Assembly: GCA_963681505.1 (NCBI GenBank)
Contig: OY811977.1
Coordinates: 1,995,217-2,059,216 of the forward strand
DNA length: 64,000 bases
Source: Eunapius fragilis
Lineage: Eukaryota > Porifera > Demospongiae > Spongillida > Spongillidae
Direction: 5' to 3'
In this document: one piece after another, positions 1,697-59,350 of the stretch
Position numbering within the stretch: the stretch's first letter is position 1
Layout: every line of letters starts with the position of its first letter
The notes under the pieces: model-generated
Database searches by the model: none
Told to the model about the DNA's origin: nothing
What the model saw: only the letters and a program-made list of their open reading frames with translations
Program-made: the position numbers and the translations under genes

Positions 1697-2373
1697 GTTT
1701 GAATCATTGTTGTTAAAGTGTTATCCCCTCTACCCCCTCTATCCCCCTGTATCCCTCTATCCCCTCTACCCCCCTCTACCTGCCTTTATCCCTCTATCTG
1801 TTTGATGCAAATGTTGTTTCTTGTGATAACTGAGGTTGTTTAGGTTATTAATTTTGTGGTAGCTGAGTGGGCATTAATTGTTGTTCACCACCCAAACCAG
1901 TTTGCAGTAAGCATCAATTTTGGCTGGTACTGCTCAACAGCTGTCTCTCCCACAACCCAGGTCTGCTCAAACCTCTTCTTTCTACAGTTACAACAGCTTC
2001 GCACAAACACCAAAATAACTGCAAGTGATCTGACATTACCAAGCAAAAAAAAAACCTTTTCAGGTCAATTCAAAGGAATATCCTACCTTTTCAGGTCAAT
2101 TCAAAGGAATATCCTAGATATACTACACCCACTCATGTCCAACACACAAACACACTCAGCCTTCATAGATTAGGAGACCAACCTTCTTTTGCCACACCCA
2201 CCCATGCAGGCATGCCAACACACAAACACACTCAGCCTTTGCTTGAAGAGGTTACATGCATAGATTAGGAGACCAAGATCTTATTCAGGTTCCCTGTGAG
2301 GGACAGAGGGGGACCAGAGGCCTAACACTTTGTGGTTACAACAACACCTAACCACACATATTTCTACATGTGT
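1697..2373. other. Intergenic, with short duplications
   Basis: No gene is visible. CCCTCTA-rich microsatellite follows the stop codon at 1730-1800. A perfect 31-bp tandem duplication occupies 2055-2085 and 2086-2116. A longer imperfect duplication shares the words CAACACACAAACACACTCAGCC and CATAGATTAGGAGACCAA (about 2128-2183 and 2195-2275). The phrase TGTGGTAGCTGAGTGG occurs at about 1855 and again at about 2646. Confidence 0.7.
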
Positions 2374-2697
2374 CATGAAAGTTAAAACTACATCACACGA
2401 CCCTTCCTTGGTCTGACACACGGGGGTGGGAGATTCATGTAGAATATGGAACAAGCAGGTGGTGGGTGCAGGGTGTGTATAAGGAACGGATGGGTGTATG
2501 TGATAGGGAGAAGCGTGATGGTGTGGAGAGAAGGTACGCACTGAAGAAGAGAAAGGGACTCTGCCCAAAAGATATAAGTTTTATGCTAATCTAGTTGTGT
2601 CTACTGTTGATGTAAGCAGTTAATTGTTGTTAGGATATACTTATTTGTGGTAGCTGAGTGGGAGGGGTCGTGTGATGTAGTTTTAACTTTCATGACG
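2374..2697. mobile_element. Foldback/MITE-like element ending at the start codon of the next gene
   Basis: The segment beginning GTCATGAAAGTTAAAACTAC at about 2374-2406 recurs as its reverse complement at about 2664-2696, giving inverted repeats of about 33 bp around 257 bp. The right end stops 2-3 bases before the ATG at 2699. The 5' UTR or promoter of the Z-alpha protein gene is therefore at least partly transposon-derived. I see no transposase and no clear target-site duplication. Confidence 0.6.
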
Positions 2698-2698
2698 C

Positions 2699-3766
2699 AT
2701 GGCGGAAAGCTTGAGTGAACTTGAAGGCAAGGCTTTGGAAGCGCTTCGCAACTCTCATTCGCCACTAAAGGCACTGGGTGTCGCCAAGGCGATAGGAAAG
2801 ACAACAGCAAAGGACGTCAACCCGACGTTGTATGGATTGGAGAAGAAGGGATTGGTTTGTAGACATTTAGACGGCCAGACGCCAATGTGGAGGATAGCCG
2901 GCAGCAGTCCAGCTAGCGCAACTCCACCCATTCCAGCTACGTGGAACGACGCCCCCTTGTATACAAGGAGGGATTCGGGCAATGGAGAAGTGACCTTCTC
3001 TCCCGTACGTAGGGATGATGTTTTGAACCAGTCTATTGCCGCCATGACTCTGTCCCAACCGCTCAGCATTCCTTCCGATTCCGGCGACGGGGCGCCTGTC
3101 CCGCAAAATACCGCGCTTGTAGTGGACACAGGGCTTGCTACACTTGCGTCAGCTCCGCCGGAGGGTCACGTGCCTAGAGACAGACCTAGTACCCTCGTAC
3201 CAGTAATTGGCGGGCAGGCGGAACAAACTCAATGTAATGTCCCCGGACCAAACGGGGCATCCGTGACCCCAAATGGGGCAACGGTGTCCCCTGATGAAGT
3301 AAGTGCGGATGGAATAAACGTTACCTCCAATGGAATAGGTGCTGCCACCGTGACTCCACCTCCAACCACGCCCCTAACACCACAGGCCCAGACCACTGGC
3401 ACACCATCACCGACTCGTAGCGACTCCCAATCCCGGGACACTCCGCCCTTCTCAAGTGGCAGGAAAAACAAGCAGCCGGTCAAACTTGCAGCGAACTTTG
3501 GAGCCTCCACACCTCCCACACCTCTCAGGGACCAGGTCGTCAGGGACCAGGTCGTCAGGGACCAGGTCGTCAGGGACCAGGTCGTCAGTTACCTGGAGAC
3601 ATGCAGCAGTGCTGTTGATGCAAACACAGTGGCCAAAGGCATCGGGTGTAAGTCAAGAGGGGACGTGTACCCTGTTTTAACTGGTTTAGCAACCGATGGG
3701 ATTGTTAGAGAAGAAAGGAAAGACGGTTCAGTGATTAGCTTATGGAGGTTGATACCTAAGCCTTAA
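2699..3766 (+). CDS. Z-alpha domain protein (two Z-DNA/Z-RNA-binding winged helices, no recognised catalytic domain)
   Basis: A single-exon 355-residue protein. Residues 2-68 form a Z-alpha winged helix: the recognition-helix motif KDVNPTLYGLEKKGLV has the Asn and Tyr that contact Z-form nucleic acid in ADAR1 and ZBP1, and the wing TPMW keeps one Pro and the Trp. Residues 70-275 are Ser/Thr/Pro/Gly-rich and probably disordered. Residues 277-296 are four RDQVV repeats. Residues 297-353 form a second winged helix (motif DVYPVLTGL, wing ending SLW). There the Asn and Tyr are replaced, as in the Z-beta domains that do not bind Z-DNA. No deaminase, kinase, RHIM or dsRNA-binding domain is visible. 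The ATG at 2699 follows a foldback element. The gene lies 684 bp upstream of the ADAR gene on the same strand, and both are intronless and CpG-rich. It could be a sensor, a decoy or an ADAR-derived paralogue. Confidence 0.85.
   Translation: MAESLSELEGKALEALRNSHSPLKALGVAKAIGKTTAKDVNPTLYGLEKKGLVCRHLDGQTPMWRIAGSSPASATPPIPATWNDAPLYTRRDSGNGEVTFSPVRRDDVLNQSIAAMTLSQPLSIPSDSGDGAPVPQNTALVVDTGLATLASAPPEGHVPRDRPSTLVPVIGGQAEQTQCNVPGPNGASVTPNGATVSPDEVSADGINVTSNGIGAATVTPPPTTPLTPQAQTTGTPSPTRSDSQSRDTPPFSSGRKNKQPVKLAANFGASTPPTPLRDQVVRDQVVRDQVVRDQVVSYLETCSSAVDANTVAKGIGCKSRGDVYPVLTGLATDGIVREERKDGSVISLWRLIPKP
3527..3586 (+). repeat. 15-bp coding minisatellite (RDQVV x4)
   Basis: Four identical 15-bp units, AGGGACCAGGTCGTC, lie directly before the second Z-alpha-like domain. 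Units are in frame and would act as a variable-length linker. Confidence 0.95.
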
Positions 3767-4430
3767 GACACACACTTTATCAATACACTTTGTATGATTG
3801 TCAGTCTGTCATGCTTGTTTAATATATTGTGCAGAAAAATATTATAAACCATTATTTTATGTACTGTGTTACTGATATCGTGTTTTTTGTAAAAATTTGA
3901 TTATAATAGTGTTTTAAATATACATGTATATGTGAGTTTTGAGTGTACTGTATTTAATAGTTAGAAATGCAAATTATAGTATTTACTGGCACCCAACTAT
4001 GGCTTTCAGTACAAAGATTAAAATGCTGGTCTTAGTGCCTGTGAGATTTCCACAGGATTTGAACAATGCTGCATGATTATGGATACTTATGTATAATGTC
4101 TTATCATCCCTAACGCGGTGTTCTTTTTTTTGCGTCCACTTATTACCCGTGTAACTTTCAGGTACATGCACCTATCTAATCTCGTACCCAGACTCACGTA
4201 GCCACAGCTTACTAAGTAACGTGGGGGAGGGGGGGGGGCGGTAGCGGATCTCTGGGTACGAGATTAGAACATGACGAGCGAGATGTATACGGTAGACTAA
4301 GCCTTACCTTGATAAGGGAAAATGCTCGGACAAGATCCAGCTGGCTTCTTTTATTATTATGTTAATTACATTGTAATTAGTCTTACTAATCTTTCCACAT
4401 AACTCAATTTTTGAATTTGTTGTTGCATTC
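3767..4430. other. Intergenic, AT-rich, containing one small MITE
   Basis: No coding potential is visible. The 3' flank of the Z-alpha gene is AT-rich and has no textbook AATAAA close to the stop. The only structure is the inverted repeat at 4176-4267, listed separately. Confidence 0.6.
4176..4267. mobile_element. 92-bp MITE with 17-bp terminal inverted repeats
   Basis: CTAATCTCGTACCCAGA at 4176-4192 is the exact reverse complement of 4251-4267. The interior is G-rich (4221-4241). It is a small non-autonomous foldback element of unknown superfamily. Confidence 0.7.
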
Positions 4431-4450
4431 CGATTGGCCACGTGACCACT
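4431..4450 (+). promoter_or_regulatory. CCAAT (inverted) and E-box directly upstream of ADAR start
   Basis: ATTGG (an inverted CCAAT box) is followed by CACGTG at 4439-4444, six bases before the ATG at 4451. The same nonamer CACGTGACC occurs in the BET1/ACTL6A divergent promoter at 9374-9382. The word match is seen; a function is inferred. Confidence 0.45.
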
Positions 4451-7400
4451 ATGGCAGATTGGCTGTACGAGAGTATAATTAGCTACATGGAGCCCAGACG
4501 GAAATACACCACACCAGACCTCGCGAAGGCCGCGGGGCTAAGCCAGGCCAGGGACGTAACGCCCCTACTACAAGACCTGGAACGGCAGGGCAAGATACAG
4601 CAAGTCACGGGAACTCCCTACTGGGAGAGGATCCGTTTCGACCGAACGAGGGGGCCATCCCCTCGTGGAGGGCGGCAAGGAGGGAGCGGTCACACGCAGG
4701 ACTACAGCTATTCTCGCCAAGGTGGCGGAAGGGGTGGCAGTGGTGACGGCGGCGGCGGTAGAAGTGATCGCCATTCGAGCGGCAGTGGTCCGACTGCCAA
4801 CATCAGGGACAGACTGTTGTACGCCATGCAAGCGATGAACGGGACGCCCGTGACCGCGCTGGCACTAGCCAAACAGCTCGGGTTCCCTACGCGCAAGCAT
4901 GTCAACCCGACCTTGTACGCGCTTCACAGAGAAGGCGTCATTCGCATGTCGCAAGACGCGGGGCCACCTGTCTGGAGCGTTGGCCCAGTTCCGCGCCATT
5001 TGGCCGTCCCGGCGCCGTACGGCTTCGACCCCTCAGCAGCTTCCAGCGGCGCGCAACCCGTTCCCCCACCGTCGGAGGAGGAACTCGCTAGGAAACTGTT
5101 GGACGCCCTCACCAGCTCGGTCGGGCCCCAGACGACCCTTCAGCTGGGGAAGTCCGTTTGCGCCTCGCGGAGCGCCATCACTCCCGTTCTGCATAGGATG
5201 GGGCACGAGGGGATCATCGCGGCCCTGCCCGGCAACCCGGAGAGGTGGTCTGCGAAGAGCGGTTGCGGGGGGACAGCCCCTAGTAACCCACAGCAACAAA
5301 AACATGTGACCACTAATGTTGATGTTCCCTCTGGAGATGTCCTACCTTGTCTTGGTGACACTGGGACAGGGAGTCAGGAGGAGGGAGATGAAAGGCCGTT
5401 GGTGATGGATGTACAAGTGCCTATGGAGGTGGTATCTGTGGGGCCCACATTGGAGCCAAGTGGACCACTGTCCCAGGAAATGGGCCCTGCGTTAGAACAA
5501 TGGAGGTCCGTATCGGGACAGATGGGGTCCACATCTGAGCAACGCAGGTCTGCATCGGAACAGGCAGTGTCCACATCTGATGCGGATCAAACCACATCGG
5601 ACCATTGGGGGTCTATTTCAGGATCCGCGTCAGATACAGACCTGGCGAGGAGGCCCACATTAGAACAGAGAGGGTCTGCGTCAGACGGGCCGCCATTACA
5701 GAGCAGCCCTGTCCCAGGGGGTGAGGAGGACATCTGCCGCAGGCTCCTCACCCTGCTCACCACCACGTCCTCGCAGCTTACGGCGCTCCAGCTGGCCCAG
5801 AAGTTGGGCATGAGGAGAACCGACGTTAACCCCTTGCTGTACGGGATGGAGAAGAGGGGCGTGGTCAGGGCGGTGAAAGGGAGCATGCCCCCAAAATGGT
5901 GCCTCGTCGCCGACGACAATGACAACGACGACAACCGCCCTGCAGGTACCCAGTCCTTCGAATTCTCCACATCCAGCATGCAGGGTCAGGACGTGGGCCT
6001 TGAGTTAGAGCCATCCGGAGACGCGGACATGGAAGACGGAAGTAAGGACAAGCTGTCGCAGTTTGCCGACATGTTGGCCCCCCTCCCTCCCGACGACACT
6101 CGAGGCCGCCTGCTCCTGGTACTGCAGTCCGACGTCACCATGCAGTACACGGAACTGGAACTGGCCCGTTACCTCGGCTTCTCCTCCAGACGCGACGTCG
6201 CCCCCACCCTGCAGGCGTTGAAATCCGAGGGGTTGGTCAATCACACGGTCGGCTTGTTCCCGGTCAGGTGGGGTCTCGTGTCGGGCAGCGACGCCCCCGT
6301 GCCAACAGACCCTATCCCGTACCCCGTGCCAACAGACCCCATCCCGTACCCCGGACCCAACAGTGCATGCAGCATGGCTGAGCTAACCAGGCCACCCATG
6401 GCTGCTCCGTACGCGCCACCACCAAGTACCGCATTGTCTCCTCTGGTGTCCGAAAGGATCGCCGAAGACGTCACTCGCAACCCCATCAGCCGTCTCACGG
6501 AGTACTGCCAGGCCAAGAAGTTCGACCTGGTCTTCGCCGAGCTCCGGGAGTACGGACCCCCGCACAGGAGGAACTACGTGGTGGCCGCCCAGTTTGCTGG
6601 CCACAGCTTCGAGGCCGAGTCCACCAACAAGAAAGACGCGAGGAGGATGGCCGCCGACCTAGCGCTGCAGTCCGTACTGGCCAGCCAGGTCTCCTACGGT
6701 CAACAACAACAACAACAACAACAACAATCCCTCCTCCACCAGATGCTTCCCGGGCCGGCGGCGGGATTGTCCGAATGTTCCAGCATCCACGACAGGGTGG
6801 CCCAGCTCAGCCACGACTTCTACCTCCAGGTGCAGAACTCCCTCCAGGCACCCCAGCCAGGACGCAAGGTGACCGCGTGCTTCGTCATGGAGGACACCGC
6901 GTCGGGCGCGCACACGCCCGTCGCCGTGGGCAGCGGGACGCGCTGCATCACCGGGGACCAGATGAGCCTGGAGGGACTGGTGGTGAACGACTCGCACGCG
7001 GAGATAGTAGCCAGGCGTTCCCTCCTGCGCTTCTTCTACAGCCAGCTCAGGGAGTACCACCGGGGGGGCTCCTCGGACGACACCATCTTCTGCGAGTGGG
7101 TCGACCACCCTCCGCTCCTCGCCGTGAAGGACAACATTAAGTTCCACCTCTACATCAGCACAGCACCTTGCGGGGATGGCGCCCAGTTCTCCCGGGGTGA
7201 CGTCCAGAACCGCGAGCCTCCTCCCCAGGCCTCCGCCCCCGACGGGGGCGGAGGCAGCGGCAACCCCCACCAGCCGACCATGTCCGCCAAGACCCAAGGG
7301 GTGCTGCGTACCAAGATGGAGGGTGGGGAGGGGACCATCCCCATCGCCGGGGACGCCCCCCCACAGACGTGGGACGGGATACTTCACGGGGGGCGCCTGC

Positions 7401-8110
7401 GCACCATGTCGTGCAGCGACAAGGTCGGGCGCTGGAACGTCCTCGGGCTCCAGGGGGCGGCCCTCTCCCACTTCGTCCGCCCCGTATACCTCACCTCCCT
7501 CACCCTGGGGTCCCTGCACCACCACGGCCACCTCTCGAGGGCCGTCTGCTGCAGGTTCGGCGACCTAGCCGCAGGGGGGGTGGGGGGAAGGGGAGAAGGG
7601 GGGGGAGACGACCTAGCCGCGGGGGAGGTGGGGTTGGCGGGGGTGGGAGGGGGAGGAGGCTTGCCCGACGGCTTTGAGGTCAACCACCCTCTGTTGGGGC
7701 GCGTGAGGGGAGGGGACGAGATGAAGAGGCACACTGAGAAGGCATGCAACTTCAGCCTCAACTGGGCGCACGGGGACCAGCTAGGGGAGCTAAACGACGG
7801 TGGGAACGGGAGACCCGTCCCCATTCCGGGGCTACCTCGGTCCCAGCTCTCGCTCGCCTGCTCCCGGATTTCCAAGGCGAGCCTGTTTGGCCAGTTTGTC
7901 GCTCTCTGCCAGCTGACAAACAGGACCGACCTGTTTGCCGGCAGGAGCTACAGGGAGGTCAAGGAGGCTGCGGCGGGCTTTCGGCGGGCCAAGGAGATGC
8001 TGTACAAGCTGTGCGAGCAGAAGGGCTATGGGGTGTGGATGAGGAAGCCTCCTGAGCAGGAGCAGTTTGACGTCAGTGTCTTGGAAAGGTTGAGACAGTA
8101 TGACACATAG
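4451..8110 (+). CDS. ADAR: ADAR: double-stranded-RNA adenosine deaminase with five Z-alpha-like domains
   Basis: A complete single-exon gene of 1219 residues; I choose the ATG at 4451 because upstream in-frame codons are not ATG and CACTATGG is a fair start context. It converts adenosine to inosine in dsRNA. Five winged helices lie at about 2-66, 117-180, 209-270, 426-487 and 548-613. A single dsRNA-binding domain at 677-746 contains NKKDARRMAADLAL. The deaminase spans about 778-1214 with the zinc and catalytic residues H849, E851 (NDSHAEIVARR), C907 (APCGDG) and C988 (SCSDK). The second and fourth Z-alpha domains keep Asn, Tyr and PPxW; the first, third and fifth have lost Asn and Tyr. Human ADAR1 has two Z domains and three dsRBDs, so the balance is reversed here. 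Oddities are a polyQ run (about 754-762), a duplicated VPTDPIPYP, and a Gly-rich insertion in the deaminase (about 1040-1070). Confidence 0.96.
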   Translation: MADWLYESIISYMEPRRKYTTPDLAKAAGLSQARDVTPLLQDLERQGKIQQVTGTPYWERIRFDRTRGPSPRGGRQGGSGHTQDYSYSRQGGGRGGSGDGGGGRSDRHSSGSGPTANIRDRLLYAMQAMNGTPVTALALAKQLGFPTRKHVNPTLYALHREGVIRMSQDAGPPVWSVGPVPRHLAVPAPYGFDPSAASSGAQPVPPPSEEELARKLLDALTSSVGPQTTLQLGKSVCASRSAITPVLHRMGHEGIIAALPGNPERWSAKSGCGGTAPSNPQQQKHVTTNVDVPSGDVLPCLGDTGTGSQEEGDERPLVMDVQVPMEVVSVGPTLEPSGPLSQEMGPALEQWRSVSGQMGSTSEQRRSASEQAVSTSDADQTTSDHWGSISGSASDTDLARRPTLEQRGSASDGPPLQSSPVPGGEEDICRRLLTLLTTTSSQLTALQLAQKLGMRRTDVNPLLYGMEKRGVVRAVKGSMPPKWCLVADDNDNDDNRPAGTQSFEFSTSSMQGQDVGLELEPSGDADMEDGSKDKLSQFADMLAPLPPDDTRGRLLLVLQSDVTMQYTELELARYLGFSSRRDVAPTLQALKSEGLVNHTVGLFPVRWGLVSGSDAPVPTDPIPYPVPTDPIPYPGPNSACSMAELTRPPMAAPYAPPPSTALSPLVSERIAEDVTRNPISRLTEYCQAKKFDLVFAELREYGPPHRRNYVVAAQFAGHSFEAESTNKKDARRMAADLALQSVLASQVSYGQQQQQQQQQSLLHQMLPGPAAGLSECSSIHDRVAQLSHDFYLQVQNSLQAPQPGRKVTACFVMEDTASGAHTPVAVGSGTRCITGDQMSLEGLVVNDSHAEIVARRSLLRFFYSQLREYHRGGSSDDTIFCEWVDHPPLLAVKDNIKFHLYISTAPCGDGAQFSRGDVQNREPPPQASAPDGGGGSGNPHQPTMSAKTQGVLRTKMEGGEGTIPIAGDAPPQTWDGILHGGRLRTMSCSDKVGRWNVLGLQGAALSHFVRPVYLTSLTLGSLHHHGHLSRAVCCRFGDLAAGGVGGRGEGGGDDLAAGEVGLAGVGGGGGLPDGFEVNHPLLGRVRGGDEMKRHTEKACNFSLNWAHGDQLGELNDGGNGRPVPIPGLPRSQLSLACSRISKASLFGQFVALCQLTNRTDLFAGRSYREVKEAAAGFRRAKEMLYKLCEQKGYGVWMRKPPEQEQFDVSVLERLRQYDT

Positions 8111-12400: not shown

Positions 12401-15391
12401 ATTAGCCTGCAACCAATGCTCTGGTAATATCATTAGCCTGCAACCAATGCTCTGGTAATATCATTAGCCTGCAAACAATGCTCTGGTAGTATCATTAGCC
12501 TGTAACCAATGCTCTGGTAGTATCATTAGCCTGTAACCAATGCTCTGGTAATATCATTAACCTGCAACCAATGCTCTGGTAGTATCATTAGCCTGCAACC
12601 AATGCTCTGGTAATATCATTAACCTGTAACCAATGCTCTGGTAATATCATTAGCCTGTAACCAATGCTCTGGTAATATCATTAACCCTGTAACCAATGCT
12701 CTGGTAATATCATTAACCTGTAACCAATGTTCTGGTAGTATCATTAGCCTGTAACCAATGCTCTGGTAGTATCATTAGCCTGTTACTTTCCTGTAAATTG
12801 CTAGTGGGTTTTTCGTTTTTTATATCGGATGTGTTGCAAGTTGGGAGGGCTAGGTTTGCGTTGACAGAGAAGTTGTACTTCAGTAATTTGGGGTAGCACT
12901 AATTGGGGATTGCTGCATTTTGTTTCATGGTAGTTGCCATAGTGACCCTACTTGTTCCTTCACCCTCAGTGGAACTTGAAGCAGAAGAGAGAGAAGCTAA
13001 CTGAGCTCATGTTTGAGACCTACAACGTACCCGCCTTCTTCCTGGCCAAGACTGCTGTACTGTCAGCGTAAGTACATGACGTCAACTGATTTGTTCCGGT
13101 TTTGATGCGCATGCATGTGATGTTCATGTCAGTGCTGAAAAGGGGGTCTGCTGTGTGGCTGGAAGGGGGGGGGGGAAATGTTTTAGATCTGGGAGATAAC
13201 TCTGGCAAATACATAATAGCCATTAGGTGAATTATCGATTGTGTTGAAGTTTTTGCCTACTGAAATTATATGCAAAAAATAAGGCAGCATTGCAAATCAG
13301 AAGAAAAAAAGAATTACTTTTAAAGATACATAGATGATGAGGGGAGGGAGGGAGGGGATGGGGAGGGAGGGGATGCTTTCCTTTCCACCACTATAGGTCC
13401 ACACAACCTTACCTCCACCCTCACCTCAGGTTTGCTAATGGTCGTTCCACTGCTCTGGTGGTCGACTCGGGAGCGACGCACACGTCAGTTGTTCCCGTCC
13501 ACGACGGCTATGCCCTCCAGGGGGCCGTGGTGAAAACGCCGCTGGCGGGGGACTTCATCACGGCGCAGTGTCAGAGGTTCATGGACGATGTCGGGGTGGA
13601 GGTGGTGCCGGCCTACATGGTGGCCAGCAAAGACGTGGTGAAGGAGCGGGCACCCGCCAGCTACGTCAAGAAGAACATCCCACCCGTGACAAAGTCCTTT
13701 CACCAGTACATGGTTAAGGTATGGGACAGGGTCTCTTCAGTCCATGAGGGAAGGGTGTGTGCCAGCCGGGTATTGTGTGTTACATAATACTGTCACCTAT
13801 GTATGGGCGGGGCTATCTCCAATGTATGGGTGGGGCTATCTCCAATGTATGGGTGGGGCTATCTCCAATGTATGGGTGGGGCTATCTCCAATGTATGGGT
13901 GGGGCTATCTCCAATGTATGGGCGGGGCTATCTCCAATGTATGGGCGGGGCTATCTCCAATGTATGGGTGGGGCTATCTCCAATGTATGGGCGGGGCTAT
14001 CTCCAATGTACGGGCGGGGCTATCTCCAATGTACGGGCGGGGCTATCTCCAATGTATGGGCGGGGCTATCTCCAATGTACGGGCGGGGCTATCTCCAATG
14101 TATGGGCGGGGCTATCTCCAATGTACGGGCGGGGCTATCTCCAATGTATGGGCGGGGCTATCTCCAATGTATGGGCGGGGCTATCTCCAATGTATGGGCG
14201 GGGCTATCTCCAATGTACGGGCGGGGCTATCTCCAATGTATGGGTGGGGCTATCTCCAATGTATGGGTGGGGCTATCTCCAATGTATGGGTGGGGCTATC
14301 TCCAATGTATGGGCGGGGCTATCTCCAATGTATGGGCGGGGCTATCTCCAATGTATGGATGGGGCTATCTCCAATGTATGGGCGGGGCTATCTCCAATGT
14401 ACGGGCGGGGCTATCTCCAATGTATGGGCGGGGCTATCTCCAATGTACGGGCGGGGCTATCTCCAATGTATGGGCGGGGCTATCTCCAATGTACGGGCGG
14501 GGCTATCTCCAATGTACGGGCGGGGCTATCTCCAATGTACGGGCGGGGCTATCTCCAATGTATGGGCGGGGCTATCTCCAATGTACGGGCGGGGCTATCT
14601 CCAATGTATGGGTGGGGCTATCTCCAATTTACGGGCGGGGCTATCTCCAATGTATGGGTGGGGCTATCTCCAATGTATGGGTGGGGCTATCTCCAATGTA
14701 TGGGCGGGGCTATCTCCAATGTATGGGCGGGGTATCACCATCCGTGTTTGTGGCACAATACACTAACTGAAGGGCCTTCTATTACCACTTATTTCACATT
14801 AATTTATCACTTTTATTAATGTATCACTTTTATTAATGTATCACTTTTATTAATGTATCACTTTCATTAATGTACATTTGCCATTACTAGGCTGTCTTCA
14901 TGATTTCTGCTGTGTTTGTAAACTCAATGATTTAAACAACAGCAGTAAACTAGTCACACTGCTCAGAACTAAATACAATCAGTGCAAGAACCCTATAAAG
15001 TGGGCTTTATTTAGAATACAACTGTGTAGATGTGGCAAGTGTGTGTAACAGTAAGCCTTGCTCTGTGCACACAGGAGGTGCTCCGCGACTTTTCAGCCAC
15101 CGTGGCAGAGGTCTCAACCAGCAACCTCAAGGATGAGTGAGTTTTTGTTACCGTATTTTGTTCCATGTACGTAACGGGACGTCTTATGACAAAATTTGGA
15201 TTTGTGGATATGTTTTCAAGTAATTTCTTTTGATCTGTTTACCCATATTAGACGCTAATACCTTCTGCAAAACCAACTTTTACGCACTTAAATTGGAACC
15301 ATCCGTGCGGAGTTATAAAGCGCTGAATTTTTAATTAAGACGTACTTTTCAATAGAAACGGGTCATCTTCTTTTTAGTTTGATTACTTTGA

Positions 15392-43277: not shown

Positions 43278-43462
43278 TTGGATTTACAATATATTTACTA
43301 CTGTTCAAATGTGGTGCAAATGTGTATGTAAATATGGTATATGTGACATTTCCACAATAGTAAATGAAAGCTTCATATTTAGGTATTGGTGTCACATATA
43401 CCATATTTACTAACACATTTGTACCACATTTGATCAGTAGTAAATGTATTGTAAATCCATAT
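43278..43462. mobile_element. Hairpin MITE nested at the left end of P1
   Basis: Arms of about 70 bp (43278-43348 and 43391-43462) are imperfect inverted repeats sharing ACAATATATTTACTACTG-type ends. The uninterrupted P1 right end reads GGATTTATGG where the left end has the hairpin after GGATTTA. It is therefore an insertion into P1. Confidence 0.65.
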
Positions 43463-46880: not shown

Positions 46881-47717
46881 GTGTGGAGAGGTATAAGCCA
46901 TATCCACAATATTCTTATCCAGCGTCAGACTGCTTCATCATGTATGCTTAGTGTGGAGAGGTTAGAGAGGCATATTTGAGTCTAGAAAAATTAGTGGCAG
47001 CTATTCATATTTGTAATAACAATGAGTACACAGAACATGTGCAGGGATCAGCTGCAAGCAATAAATAATACATGCACACATACACATCACACATACACAT
47101 GCACACAAACACATACACTCACACAAATATTACAATTCCTGCTTCTGGTTTTAGCTACTCCCAAACTCTGTCTTCCAATATGGCCTAGTATGAAGACCAG
47201 AGCCGATTTCAGCGTTGCTACGAACTTTTGCCGAAATAAAACTACAATTGACTGCTTTTGTCTACTTATAGTAGTACATCAAATCGGAACCTACGAGACA
47301 TATAGGAATCCTGCAGGATGATGATAGATAATTGTCTAATCTCCTTGAAGAAGGTTCACGTGTGAATGGCTGGACACAAGAAGTACTCTTGTAAGTCCTG
47401 GCCCCCCCCCCCCCCCCCCCCCCCCCCCCAAGGAAATTGGTTATTAGAAGCTAGGAAATTATAATCAAGAGCCTCATAAATCAACATATTCAAACTTCTA
47501 TGTGTACCAGTTGTGTACAACTTTACACCAAATGTGTTATTTTAAATAAACTACTGTATAGGTAACCTGAATGAAAAAGATTTTTGTATCATAAGAAACA
47601 ATATATACTCATACTCCTCCAGCATGTACTGCATGGTTATTGTTACTTAATGAAACTGTAACTCCACTGAAACTATGGCAGAAAAGACAATGATTTAAAA
47701 ATCTCCTTCACTTTTAG

Positions 47718-47870
47718 TTTGATTTTGAAGTGTACGGCATTGATTGGGATGGCCCTACAACTCTTACTGATGAAGCTGAACAAGTGGTTTTGGATGATCT
47801 TTCTGCCGGGTATTCTTTCAAGTGGTCAGAAACGTCCACTACATGGTTTGCCACCAATATCAGAAAATGA
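47718..47870 (+). other. Exon-like ORF in the loop of P1
   Basis: After a CACTTTTAG acceptor-like site, a 50-codon frame reads FDFEVYGIDWDGPTTLTDEA and continues to TGA at 47868. The YGIDWDGP word reminds me of C-terminal regions of transposon-encoded integrase-core proteins, but this is memory, not a search. It is the only protein-like segment in the loop. Confidence 0.3.
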
Positions 47871-48949
47871 AATTGAAAATTCCTTCATCAGGCATTTCAT
47901 GGTTGCTAATTAAAATGCATGTTCACAGCACAGTGAGCTAACAGTGACCTGTGAAAATGTTAAACCATTTAACGTTTTGTCTCATTCAATTATATCCATG
48001 CACATGAGTTCTTGTTCTCTCATGTCTTTTCTGCCATAGTTTCAGTGGAGTTACAGTTTCATTAGGTAACAATAACCATGCAGTACATGCTGCAGGAGTA
48101 TGAGTATATATTGTTTCTTATGATACAAAAATCGTTTTCATTCAGGTCACCTATACAGTAGTTTATTAAAATTAACACATTTGGTGTAAAGTTGTACACA
48201 CTGGTACACATAGAAGTTTGAATATGTTGATTTATGAGGCTCTTTATTATAATTTCCTAACTTCTAATAACCAATTTCCTTGGCGGGGGGGGGGGGGGGG
48301 GGGGGGGGGCAGGACTTACAAGAGTACGTTTTGTGTCCAGCCATTCACACGTGAACCTTCTTCAAGGAGATTAGATATTAAAATTATCTACTCATCATCC
48401 TGCAGGATTCCTATATGTCTCGTAGGTTCCGATATGACGTACTACTATCAGTAGACAAAAGCATTCAATTGCGGTTTTATTTCGGCAAAGGTTCGTAGCA
48501 ATGCCGAAATCGGCTCTGGTCTTCATACCAGGCCATATTGGAAGAGTTTGGGAGTAGTTAAACCAGAAGCAGGAATTGTAATATATGTGGTGTATGTGTG
48601 ATGTGTATGTGCATGTATCATTTATTGCTTGCAGCTGATCCCTGCACATGTTCCGTGTACTCATTGTTATTACAAATATGAATAGCTTGTATTACTATTA
48701 CACCTACCCAGTGTTGCTATTACACCTACCCCTCCCACGCCTGTCATTACCACTATTACACCTACCCCTCCCACACCAGTATCACTATTACACCTCCCCC
48801 TCACACACCAGTGTTGCTATTACACCTACCCCCCTCACACACCAGTGATACTATTATAACTACCATTTACACACCTGTATTATTATTACACCTACCCCGC
48901 CCACACCTGTCCAGTATTACTGTTACACCTACTTGTAAAGTGCCTTGCA

Positions 48950-49885: not shown

Positions 49886-51081
49886 GTATCGAGAGTTACG
49901 TTAGTAACTCTCATATAGGATTTGACCCCGATTATGAATGTCATTAAAAAAACGCGACCCGCTTCTAACAAGACTCCCGACGAGCGGATGGCTTACCTTG
50001 TTATCGTCGTCGTACAAGAAGGCAACAACAAGCAGTTTCGCGTTTGTTTGATGTCACAAAACCGCGTGGTTGTAGAGAACAAAACAATTTTTGAAACTCG
50101 TACCCAGTCCCACGTATTTCTCGTTCTTCTTCTTCTTCTTCTTGTTCTTGTTCTTGACCACGCATAACTCGGGATAGGAACACTTTTAAGAAATGAAAAT
50201 CACACCAATGGCTTCAGAATTCACTTGCATTTTCGCTTCTGTGGTCAAAACGTCTCGAGGCTACATGACATTTATCGGTGGTTGTGTTAGCAAATCACGT
50301 ATAGCTTACTGCACTGACACGACTCGGATAGGTCCTACGTCGCTCTTTATACGAAGAACTAGCAGTATACATCAAATGTGTACGGTCTGGGCACTACACG
50401 TAGTGGTAATTAACTTTGGCGGTTATGTATTTTTAATAACGTGCACGTGCGTACTATAATCATTCTTGTTAATATTCGATCGTTGTAGGTTTGACGCTCT
50501 TTGTAACTTTAATAGTGAAGTTTTTTTTTCTCAAAATGCCTTCATGCACGTCAGGATAAGAAGAAAGCCAAACGACGAGCATAGTACCTCAAAACTAGAG
50601 ACGACGTATTAGATTCAGCCCGAGCGGAACTACAAAGCAGAGCCTGAAAAGAAGCGGGCCTCTCAAACGTGAAAACTATCGAGCAGAGCCTGAAAAGAAA
50701 CGGATCTCTCGACGCGCAAGGTATCGAGATGCGATTAGTAGGGGGGGAGAGGGTGCTGTCTGCTTCTGGCCCGATACAAAATGCGTTTGTGGGTTCGATC
50801 GCGCTGGTGCGACAATTAATAACCTCTCTTCTATTTCGGCCGCCCCTTAAAAGCCCCCTCAGATCCTGAAAAGGAACGGACCTCTCGACGTGCAAGGTAT
50901 CGAGCAGATCCTGAAAAAAGACAGCGATATTGCCATAGTCCTGAACGTGCATCTCGCTCGGCGAAAAGAGTTAAGGTCACTCAATGGTATGTCGTACCTT
51001 TACAACCTCCCTCTCATATCAAGATGGATTACTTAATATGCTATACGGCTCATAATCGGGTATGAATAAAAATCAATGAAA
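49886..51081. other. Transposon-derived segment between the palindromes
   Basis: 49891-50190 is a diverged direct repeat of 58203-58530: both start with a 22-nt hairpin, then ATATAGGATTTGACCCC, then CGCGTGGTTGT and a CTT-rich tract. 50190-51081 has no counterpart in the second copy and includes the basic-repeat relic at 50545-50965. Confidence 0.65.
50545..50965 (+). pseudogene. Relic of a transposon ORF with basic 'YRxDPEKRR' repeats
   Basis: Allowing frameshifts, the plus strand encodes repeated words: YKAEPEKKRAS, NYRAEPEKKRISRRARYRDA, then DPEKERTSRRARYRADPEKR. I know such Arg/Lys-rich PEKRR repeats from proteins next to Helitron-type helicases and related elements in marine invertebrates. 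Stops and frameshifts interrupt it, so it is dead. Confidence 0.5.
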
Positions 51082-51370
51082 CAAGTAAATAAAAACATTC
51101 TCTATGAGAAAGTTGGTGGCATATAGGATTTGAAGGCAATGGTGGTGTAAAAAGGAAGGAAACAAGGGTCTAGTAATAAGGAAAAATGGAATAGTCCTAT
51201 ATTTAGCACATTTCTATATGTAGGATATAGTATGTTGTTCGTGTGCTAAATATAGGACTATTCCATTTTTCCTTATTACTAGACCCTTGTTTCCTTCCTT
51301 TTTACACCACCATTGCCTTCAAATCCTATATGCCACCAACTTTCTCATAGAGAATGTTTTTATTTACTTG
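51082..51370. mobile_element. Hairpin element copy A (perfect ~129-bp arms)
   Basis: 51082-51210 is an exact reverse complement of about 51242-51370 around a ~31-nt loop. It starts CAAGTAAATAAAAACATTCT and ends in the inverse. It is related to copy B at 58564-58847. Confidence 0.9.
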
Positions 51371-52137
51371 TATATATATGGGACGGTGTCCAGCAAAATC
51401 ACCCTTCTGGAGTTTTAATTTTATCACTATAAAAATTGTACGTTACGCAAAGCAACATATCTTCACAACGGTTTTATATTTTCTTTTCAAATTTCGTACA
51501 CGTGTTCACACATCAGTTCTCTCTGTGCAAACCGATTTTGGTGCTCTAGATATTTTCCGTGCCATGGTTACAAAGGTCTCTAACCCAATGGGTTAAGATT
51601 CCACATTTTTCCAGATACGAGTGACGATAACACGTCAAATTTGGAGTGTACATAGAAGGGTCCTGTAGCTACTGATTTCTGCAGATCGTTAAGTTTTTTC
51701 TTATCCGTTACGGAGATATGGATTTTCAAAGTAATTCGACATTTCGCGCCACTCACCTTATTCCAATATGCCATTATGTAATGGTCACGCCCTTTAAATT
51801 TGAAGTTAGGTATTAAATGAACTCCGCTTTGATCGTTCTATACGTGGTGTATAAGCGAATCGATCGTACCTCGTACGCTATGTTTCAACATAAAACAGTA
51901 TCGTACGTTCACATGTATCGCTTATGATGGATGCTGTGAATATTCATGGTAGTTTATATTGTGCACCCTTTTTCTATATCTGCTCAGTTTGTACCATGCC
52001 TTCTAATCATGGGGCCACCTTCTTCACCCTCTACACCCTCTACACTAGTCTGGGGACCAGATGACTTGCTTGCGACAGTCAGTTATCTGGTACACAAACT
52101 GCAGTACCTTTACTCAGTATGGCATATATCTCTAGAC

Positions 52138-58202: not shown

Positions 58203-58847
58203 GGAAGTTTTGTTAGAAACTTCCATATAGGATTTGACCCCGACTATGAATGTCATTAAAAAACGCGACCCGTCTGTAACAACACTCCCGACGATCGGAT
58301 CGTGTAGCTTGTTTTAGCAATCGATCTAGAAGTCAAAAATGAGTAGTTTCGTTTTTGTTTCATGTCGCTGAACCGCGTGGTTGTTGAGAACAAGAGTGTA
58401 CTGCCCGTCCTCGTACCCAGTCTCGGAACAAGGGGCGGGTCGTCTTCTTATTCTTCTTCTTCTTCTCCTTCTCCTCCTTCTTCTTGGCAACGCATAACTC
58501 AGGACAGGAACATCGGCTGGAGGACTCGCTTTTATATAATATATGGAAAAAAAATTAAGAAAACAAGTAAATAAAAACATTCTCTACGAGAAAGTTGGTG
58601 GGATATAGGATTTGATTATGACATTGGTGGTGTAAAAAGCAAGGAAACAAGGTCTTATCAGAAGGGAAAATGTCATAGTCCTATATTTAGCACACAAACA
58701 ACACATGCCCTAGAAATGTGCTAAATATAGGACTATGACATTTTCCCTTCTGATAAGACCTTGTTTCCTTGCTTTTTACACCACCAATGTCATAATCAAA
58801 TCCTATATCCCACCAACTTTCTCGTAGAGAATGTTTTTATTTACTTG
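58203..58847. mobile_element. Second copy of the 22-nt-hairpin/large-hairpin element, including hairpin copy B
   Basis: 58203-58224 is a 22-nt palindrome followed by ATATAGGATTTGACCCC and sequence matching 49913-50190. Hairpin B has exact arms 58564-58693 and 58718-58847. Between them the copy lacks the ~870 bp present in the first copy. Confidence 0.82.
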
Positions 58848-59350
58848 TATAATTAATTGCTGAGGGCATGGGTGTCTCTTAGAATGTCAAATTATTTTAA
58901 AAACTGAAAAGATATGCGCTAGGTCCCTTTCGATCCCAAATATAATTCTTAAACCATTAGACATTGATTAATTGGTGTTGTTACAAGCTTGTTTGAACTG
59001 GACACCTCGCAGCTAAAAATCCAGTAGCCATGCACTACATAATAAAGAGGTTGAACGAAATTACAGTTGCAAGACATAGATAGGTCTGTGCAGAGATAAT
59101 ATATAGATGGTCTGTGGTACTTTTTTTTACAAGTCACTTCAATAGATGCACATACCCAGGTCTGTGCAGAGATAATATATAGATGGTCTGTGGTACTTTT
59201 TTTTACAAGTCACTTCAATAGATGCACACCAATTCAAATGATATACTTCTTGCAACAGAGCATACTCACACAAGGCAGTCGAGGCTTCGGAGGCTCAATC
59301 GGTACCATCTAGTCACGAAGGTAACTAGCTATATATATAGTGGCCTGAAT
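58848..59350. repeat. Intergenic with a 66-bp tandem duplication (59092-59223)
   Basis: AT-rich, no gene seen. The 66-bp unit begins AGGTCTGTGCAGAGATAATA; copies at 59092-59157 and 59158-59223 are virtually identical. Confidence 0.8.

What the first reader, a model, noticed from the sequence alone, without database searches (positions are those of the whole stretch)
2699..8110. Seven Z-alpha-type domains in two adjacent genes, one a Z-alpha-only protein
Seen: a 355-residue protein with two Z-alpha-like winged helices and no other recognised domain lies 684 bp upstream, in the same orientation, of an ADAR with five more. Known: in vertebrates Z-alpha occurs in ADAR1 and ZBP1 and senses Z-RNA/Z-DNA. 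Inference: this could be a pre-vertebrate Z-nucleic-acid sensing locus in which editor and sensor/decoy arose by local duplication. The Z-alpha-only gene is the best candidate for an undescribed component.
Basis: partly seen in the sequence, partly recalled or inferred. Interest (0 to 1): 0.85.

Follow-up and report, generated by a model that had tools for sequence, protein, structure and literature searches.

The report
Z-RNA-binder gene beside an ADAR1 gene
In an unnamed animal genome, an RNA-editing enzyme gene with five Z-nucleic-acid-type domains sits next to a small gene made of two more such domains and little else, a possible partner or rival of the editor that has not been tested.

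Summary
Confirmed, with a qualification. Two single-frame genes lie 684 bp apart on one strand: a 355-aa protein with two winged helices (2699-3766) and an ADAR1-type editor with five more, one dsRBD and an intact deaminase (4451-8110). The seven helices are one family (leave-one-out profiles 31.5-65.0 bits; 0 of 2000 shuffles each). Only three look like canonical Z-alpha: one in the small protein, the 2nd and 4th in the ADAR. They alone keep Asn173, Tyr177 and P-x-W together and are basic (pI 9.2-10.4). The other four have lost Asn and Tyr (pI 6.2-8.0) and resemble non-binding Z-beta. Three genome-wide searches (219 Mb) found Z-alpha only in these two genes, so their adjacency is unlikely to be chance. 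The domain tree does not confirm local duplication and leans against it, weakly. Sponge ADAR1s with several Z domains and a further Z-alpha protein in Anthozoa are published; a Z-alpha-only gene joined to ADAR1 was not among the papers listed by 8 searches. Best reading: a one-site Z-RNA binder without recognised effector that competes with or tunes the neighbouring editor. Sensor, split ADAR module and decaying copy remain open. Expression, binding and relatives could not be tested.

The parts
2699..3766 (+). Z-alpha-only gene, 355 aa, one open frame
2711..2905 (+). Zo_1: canonical Z-alpha domain (KDVNPTLY...TPMW)
   Evidence: Pfam z-alpha 39.8 bits; residues; motif
2906..3526 (+). Pro/Thr/Ser-rich linker, probably disordered (from composition only), no known domain
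3527..3586 (+). four in-frame 15-nt repeats coding RDQVV; the last copy opens helix 1 of Zo_2
   Evidence: positions read from the translation
3572..3763 (+). Zo_2: degenerate (Z-beta-like) winged helix at the very C-terminus
3767..4450 (.). 684-bp intergenic stretch, GC 0.36, ATTAAA at 4017, no remnant of dsRBD or deaminase found
4451..8110 (+). ADAR1-type gene, 1219 aa, one open frame: 5 winged helices, 1 dsRBD, deaminase
4451..4642 (+). AD_1: Z-beta-like (Asn and Tyr lost, TPYW kept); nearest compared relative human ADAR1 Z-beta
4799..4990 (+). AD_2: canonical Z-alpha (KHVNPTLY...PPVW)
5072..5263 (+). AD_3: degenerate winged helix
5720..5917 (+). AD_4: canonical Z-alpha (TDVNPLLY...PPKW)
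6086..6289 (+). AD_5: degenerate winged helix
6482..6673 (+). double-stranded RNA binding domain
   Evidence: Pfam dsrm 41.8 bits
6923..8050 (+). adenosine deaminase domain, ADAR1-type, zinc and catalytic residues kept, Gly-rich insert
2367..2701 (.). 335-bp inverted repeat (41-nt arms, 95% complementary); the right arm ends on the ATG of the Z-alpha-only gene; may be unrelated background

Best explanation
The locus is an editor/binder pair for Z-prone double-stranded RNA. The ADAR (shown: two competent-looking Z-alpha domains alternating with three Z-beta-like ones, then a dsRBD and an intact ADAR1-type deaminase) is brought to duplexes that can flip to the Z form and edits them (inferred). 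The small protein (shown: one competent-looking Z-alpha at the N-terminus, about 220 linker residues, one Z-beta-like domain at the C-terminus, no recognised catalytic or signalling domain) binds the same ligand through Zo_1 (inferred) and so competes with, shields from or tunes the ADAR, while the C-terminal domain gives a second contact with protein or nucleic acid (inferred). Background published in other animals, not shown here: ADARs keep self duplexes from triggering RIG-I-like receptors.
For: Domain content; Asn173, Tyr177 and P-x-W together only in Zo_1, AD_2, AD_4, and the same three are the basic ones, pI 9.58, 10.41, 9.24 against 6.18-8.00; deaminase nearest human ADAR1 (289 bits against 234 for ADAR2) with HAE, PCG, GEG and SCS kept; no effector found in the small protein; the only Z-alpha loci found in the genome are these neighbours; five RIG-I-type C-terminal domain matches in the same genome; knock-down of planarian adar1 raises dsRNA-response genes and its lethality is rescued by co-knock-down of an RLR (PMC8797187, abstract).
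Against: No binding, expression or interaction data. Lack of an effector is also what a decaying copy would show. Zo_1 lacks Pro192, and its position 169 is Ala (also Ala in human ADAR1 Z-beta and in the second domain of ZBP1, of which the latter is solved with Z-DNA). The tree does not group Zo_1 with the ADAR domains. A second, non-binding domain is not needed for a simple decoy. Z-beta-type domains may bind other things: one paper argues for G-quadruplexes (PMC11942513, passages).
Confidence: 0.4

Rival explanations
1. Sensor: the small protein is a functional counterpart of ZBP1, binding Z-RNA through Zo_1 and passing a signal through its linker or C-terminal domain by an interaction that is not RHIM-based.
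For: Two Z-type domains and no enzyme, as in ZBP1; Zo_1 pairs with human ZBP1 Z-beta in both trees (98/95; 93/95, below the tool's mark for a shown clade), and 3eyi, 2l4m and 4ka4 are rows 2, 3 and 5 of its PDB matches.
Against: The ZBP1 Z-beta row was only 47 residues long, without helix 1. No RHIM core in the protein; no RHIM over the cut-off in the six-frame genome (best 18.5 bits against 20; a 22-position model, so a weak test). ZBP1 has both domains at the N-terminus (PMC13131548, passages).
Confidence: 0.2
2. Split ADAR: the small ORF is an alternative or separate N-terminal module of the ADAR gene, made from the same locus by splicing, read-through or recent fission, rather than an independent gene.
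For: Same strand, 684 bp apart, the only Z-alpha loci found; the array of domains would simply continue.
Against: Own ATG, own stop, an ATTAAA at 4017 and no ADAR-like remnant found between the genes; GC3 0.53 against 0.76.
Confidence: 0.13
3. Decaying partial duplicate of the ADAR 5' end with no function.
For: Zo_2 has lost the Asn, the Tyr and both prolines; a 15-nt tandem repeat has grown at its edge; a decayed ADAR-type exon exists elsewhere in this genome (contig C3).
Against: 355 codons stay open (0 of 500 Markov controls reach this); Zo_1 keeps Asn173, Tyr177, Pro193, Trp195 and the basic charge; the C-terminal domain is still predicted to fold.
Confidence: 0.12
4. Nuclear Z-DNA binder acting on promoters, unrelated to RNA editing.
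For: Z-alpha domains bind Z-DNA as well as Z-RNA (PMC11293857, abstract); alternating CA/TG runs that can form Z-DNA occur nearby, for example about 1345-1373 (by eye).
Against: Adjacency to an editor would then be accidental; a narrow scan for clusters of four basic residues reported none in the small protein.
Confidence: 0.08

Closest known systems
Sponge ADAR1-like proteins (Amphimedon queenslandica: three ZB, one dsRB, one AD domain)
   Same: Several Z-type domains, one dsRBD, one deaminase (PMC4323055, text parts 1 and 2 of 3).
   Different: Five winged helices here instead of one to three in the sponge ADAR1s listed there; no neighbouring Z-alpha-only gene is described in the parts read.
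Vertebrate ADAR1 p150 (Z-alpha plus Z-beta)
   Same: Mix of a competent Z-alpha and a Z-beta that has lost the key Tyr; ADAR1-type deaminase.
   Different: Five domains in the order degenerate-canonical-degenerate-canonical-degenerate; one dsRBD instead of three.
ZBP1 (DAI)
   Same: Two Z-type domains and no enzyme; Zo_1 resembles human ZBP1 Z-beta.
   Different: No RHIM found; one domain at each end of the protein; the second lacks the binding residues.
Non-ADAR Z-alpha protein of Anthozoa (Romero et al. 2024)
   Same: An invertebrate Z-alpha protein outside the six known kinds, predicted from sequence (PMC11298590, passages).
PKZ of fishes
   Different: No kinase domain found in the small protein.

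Membership tests
Z-alpha domain family (PF02295) | Profile score over the curated cut-off (21 bits) | tested here: met
   4 of 7 domains, including Zo_1 of the small protein (39.8 bits); no match for Zo_2, AD_3, AD_5
Z-alpha domain family (PF02295) | Asn173, Tyr177 and P-x-W, held to be needed for Z-binding (PMC11298590) | tested here: met
   Met by 3 of 7 (Zo_1, AD_2, AD_4); not met by Zo_2, AD_1, AD_3, AD_5, therefore called Z-alpha-like
Z-alpha domain family (PF02295) | Winged-helix fold | tested here: met
   2 of 7 modelled: Zo_2 pLDDT 93.6, AD_3 86.8; five not modelled
Z-alpha domain family (PF02295) | B/A-to-Z conversion | not testable with these tools
   Needs purified protein and circular dichroism
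ADAR1 | At least one Z-type domain, dsRBD and deaminase in one protein | tested here: met
ADAR1 | Deaminase of ADAR1 rather than ADAR2 type, catalytic residues kept | tested here: met
   289 bits to human ADAR1, 234 to ADAR2; HAE, APCGDGA, GEG, SCS. Position 375 is Thr as in ADAR2; 376 Arg, 449 Ala and 455 Ala as in ADAR1 (my reading against the table in PMC6651903)
ADAR1 | A-to-I editing activity | not testable with these tools
   Needs an enzyme assay or paired RNA and DNA reads
ZBP1 | Two Z-binding domains at the N-terminus | tested here: not met
   One canonical domain at the N-terminus, one degenerate at the C-terminus
ZBP1 | RHIM motifs | tested here: not met
   No [IV]Q[ILVC]G core, no Pfam RHIM match in the protein
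PKZ | Kinase domain fused to Z-alpha | tested here: not met
   No kinase match in the protein
Paralogue of the neighbouring ADAR by local duplication | Domains of the two genes group together in a tree | tested here: inconclusive
   All seven as one clade p-AU 0.062; Zo_1 with AD_2 0.139; Zo_1 with Zo_2 0.074; the five ADAR domains together 0.318 (12 rows, 68 columns, 1 of 9 inner branches starred)

The most novel reading that the evidence does not exclude
An undescribed animal Z-nucleic-acid regulator: a host Z-alpha-only protein encoded next to ADAR1 that competes with the editor for Z-RNA, or senses what the editor misses, and is neither ZBP1 nor PKZ. In a bolder form the gene is under feedback by editing: its start codon, and an 8-codon upstream frame (ATG at 2692, read), lie in the arm of a 41-bp hairpin that would be an ADAR substrate if transcription starts upstream of 2367.
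Probability: 0.25. Interest if true: 0.82.

Novelty: new variant of a known kind. Interest (0 to 1): 0.56.

Why it matters
A 2023 review lists ADAR1, ZBP1 and PKZ as the only Z-alpha proteins of eukaryotes (PMC10523160, abstract start as listed); a 2024 paper adds predicted ones, among them one in Anthozoa (PMC11298590). A Z-alpha-only gene physically joined to ADAR1, in an animal with RIG-I-like receptor domains and no recognised RHIM, would make it possible to ask what Z-RNA recognition does without ZBP1-type cell death: tuning the editor, or sensing by other means. The pattern of three likely binders and four likely non-binders also gives a natural test of what Z-beta-type domains do.

Tried and rejected
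Local duplication read from DNA: blastn of the small gene against the ADAR gene gave two short weak matches (44 bp at 75%, 23 bp at 87%). Remnants of dsRBD or deaminase between the genes: none found; one match upstream (36 aa, E 0.10) was taken as chance.

Mobile-element origin of the 335-bp inverted repeat before the ATG: a DNA search found no other copy (the tool warns that very common words are skipped), and no target-site duplication was seen by eye. Such fold-backs are common here, 5 with arms of 41 nt or more in 64 kb, so the one at the ATG may be background.

Retrogene reading of the intronless ADAR: dropped, since other deaminase and RIG-I-type genes of this genome are also long single frames.

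External placing of the three weakest domains (Zo_2, AD_3, AD_5) by their own profile: a Crp-family regulator ranks first (E 0.015), ADAR1 Z-beta second (E 0.021). Their membership rests on internal homology. In the seven-domain profile search the mouse ZBP1 Z-alpha chains (E 0.11) rank below some bacterial winged helices.

Naming the organism by 18S rRNA: not achieved. Synteny in relatives: not testable, no relatives held. Zo_2 fold searches: Foldseek puts an uncharacterised bacterial protein and a bacterial regulator first, ADAR1 Z-alpha 4th; VIA puts PKZ Z-alpha first, tied with rows of several other winged-helix families. A scan of viral contigs with the seven-domain alignment was not possible and was not replaced. 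The AD_3 fold search was never run. The genome search with Pfam z-alpha returned 3 of the 4 domains that pass the cut-off singly (AD_1 missed), so weak Z-alpha domains elsewhere may have been missed too. Some clades tested were named after the tree had been seen.
Full report
What is there. The window is part of contig C7 of a 218.9-Mb genome in 24 contigs. It is treated as animal because ADARs are described as a metazoan innovation (PMC4323055, abstract); the species could not be named. ORF 2699-3766 encodes 355 residues; the next frame encodes 1219 residues from its first ATG at 4451 to 8110. Both are single frames on the + strand, 684 bp apart. The longer one has a dsRBD (41.8 bits), a deaminase (300 bits) and z-alpha matches (76.9 bits in all), so it is an ADAR. 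Its deaminase is closer to human ADAR1 (289 bits) than to ADAR2 (234 bits) and keeps the histidine, glutamate and cysteines of the active site.

The seven domains. Aligned, they share Pro, Leu, Gly and Trp at four invariant columns. Leave-one-out profiles give 51.3, 35.9, 32.2, 60.6, 31.5, 65.0 and 48.3 bits for Zo_1, Zo_2 and AD_1 to AD_5, with 0 of 2000 shuffles of each reaching its score. A profile of all seven finds ADAR1 chains, Z-beta (7.4e-11) and Z-alpha (8.5e-7), first among PDB sequences; the first bacterial winged helix comes at 0.011, ahead only of the mouse ZBP1 Z-alpha among the Z-alpha kinds I recognised in the 60 of 61 rows shown. A profile of only the three weakest (Zo_2, AD_3, AD_5) does not separate them from bacterial winged helices. 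Pfam z-alpha accepts 4 of 7 scanned singly. Against specificity, bacterial winged-helix families also pass their own cut-offs in the ADAR: HTH_Crp_2, TrmB and LexA over the whole protein, FaeA in AD_1 and HTH_IclR in AD_4.

Binders and non-binders. Romero et al. (PMC11298590, part 1 of 5 and passages) hold that Asn173, Tyr177 and the pPxW wing are needed and that look-alikes without them do not convert DNA. Here 3 of 7 qualify: Zo_1 (N, Y, TPMW), AD_2 (N, Y, PPVW), AD_4 (N, Y, PPKW). The other four, Zo_2, AD_1, AD_3 and AD_5, have Tyr, Thr, Thr and Ala for Asn, and Thr, Gln, His and Gln for Tyr; AD_1 keeps TPYW. The prolines are not absolute: the second domain of human ZBP1 has neither in this alignment yet is solved with Z-DNA (3eyi); changing its Tyr abolishes conversion (PMC13131548, a preprint, passages). 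Charge, which the motif does not use, splits the set in the same way: pI 9.58, 10.41, 9.24 against 8.00, 6.18, 7.95, 7.19. The ADAR thus alternates degenerate, canonical, degenerate, canonical, degenerate. Human ADAR1 Z-beta has likewise lost the Tyr and does not bind Z-form nucleic acid (PMC11942513, abstract and passages; the paper argues that it binds G-quadruplexes instead). AD_1 is its best match among the rows compared (37.7 bits). Two degenerate domains were modelled and fold as winged helices: Zo_2 pLDDT 93.6 and AD_3 86.8; the other five domains were not modelled.

One locus. A genome-wide search with Pfam z-alpha returns 3 places, all in these two genes. It missed AD_1, so weak domains elsewhere could also be missed. 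The whole small protein finds itself and AD_4 only; the ADAR N-terminus finds itself and Zo_1 only. If the second Z-alpha gene could lie anywhere, the chance of falling within 1 kb of the first is about 2 kb in 219 Mb, near 1 in 100,000 (inference). Common origin or a shared reason to stay together is therefore likely; which of these holds is open. Zo_1's highest pairwise score is with AD_2 (45.1 bits), against 37.4 bits with human ZBP1 Z-beta. The tree of 7 local and 5 mammalian domains (68 columns) has one starred fork, the two ZBP1 Z-alpha. Zo_1 pairs with human ZBP1 Z-beta at 93/95 (98/95 with 10 rows); that ZBP1 row is only 47 residues, without helix 1. All seven local domains as one clade are 7.2 log units worse (p-AU 0.062), Zo_1 with AD_2 5.8 worse (0.139), Zo_1 with Zo_2 6.4 worse (0.074), the five ADAR domains together 2.0 worse (0.318). 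This leans against recent local duplication without rejecting it.

Company in the genome. Other deaminase matches: a 423-aa frame on C18 with deaminase only, a second 649-aa frame on C18 that I read as ADAT1-like, and a decayed ADAR-type exon on C3 in which the catalytic HAE reads HGE. Five RIG-I C-terminal domain matches lie in long frames, four of them on C8. No RHIM passes its cut-off (best 18.5 bits against 20), a weak test for a 22-residue motif.

How it may work. The ADAR has what is needed to find and edit Z-prone duplexes. The small protein could hold the ligand at one site and has no recognised enzyme, RHIM or other effector. The simplest role is to compete with or tune the editor; a sensor with an unknown partner is the main rival. 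In planarians adar1 knock-down raises dsRNA-response genes and its lethality is rescued by silencing an RLR (PMC8797187, abstract), which gives such tuning a purpose. A 41-nt inverted repeat whose right arm ends on the start codon would put the AUG in a hairpin (fold z-score -9.36, 0 of 100 shuffles as stable) if transcription starts upstream of 2367. Fold-backs are common in this window (5 with arms of 41 nt or more), so this is a lead only.

What is known. ADAR1 with several Z domains is published for sponges: three in Amphimedon, two in Oscarella, Sycon and Corticium; one in Ephydatia (PMC4323055, parts 1 and 2 of 3). Herbert traces Z-alpha to Porifera and Capsaspora (PMC11293857, abstract, its sections 2 and 5 and passages). 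A non-ADAR Z-alpha protein is predicted in Anthozoa (PMC11298590, passages). Eight searches of the open-access library listed no paper that, by title and start of abstract, describes a Z-alpha-only gene next to ADAR1. Seven of the eight lists were capped (20 of 21, 20 of 27, 20 of 24, 15 of 23, 12 of 225, 12 of 863, 8 of 57; one search showed 6 of 6), and most subscription journals are not held. Five winged helices in one ADAR and the neighbour gene make this a new variant of a known kind.

Noticed in passing
2367-2701: 335-bp inverted repeat with 41-nt arms (95% complementary) whose right arm contains the ATG of the Z-alpha-only gene; an overlapping 8-codon upstream frame starts at 2692. No second copy found in the genome.
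   Followed up: partly
47512-48200, 58553-58858, 51081-51371, 43279-43459: Four more near-perfect fold-backs with arms of 178, 142, 130 and 70 nt (93-100% complementary); such hairpins would be long dsRNA if transcribed.
   Followed up: no
13744-14819: Minisatellite that stays open in three frames, coding repeats of the type [19 protein letters not shown].
   Followed up: no
17868-43029: Run of very long single frames, one of 3520 aa, that read as cadherin repeats and further extracellular modules (by eye, no domain scan).
   Followed up: no
L008:1444-1641: Decayed copy of an ADAR-type exon elsewhere in the genome (contig C3), HAE changed to HGE, followed by a stop.
   Followed up: partly
L015, L016, L018: Cluster of RIG-I-type C-terminal domains on contig C8 (four matches, three held as loci), in open frames of 727-805 aa.
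   Followed up: no
4451-8110: GC at third positions of the ADAR gene is 0.76, against 0.53 in its neighbour and 0.49 in the long cadherin-like frame.
   Followed up: no
1376-1693: Exon of the gene upstream that looks like a death-fold domain by eye; Pfam gives only a weak PYRIN match below cut-off (E 0.03).
   Followed up: no
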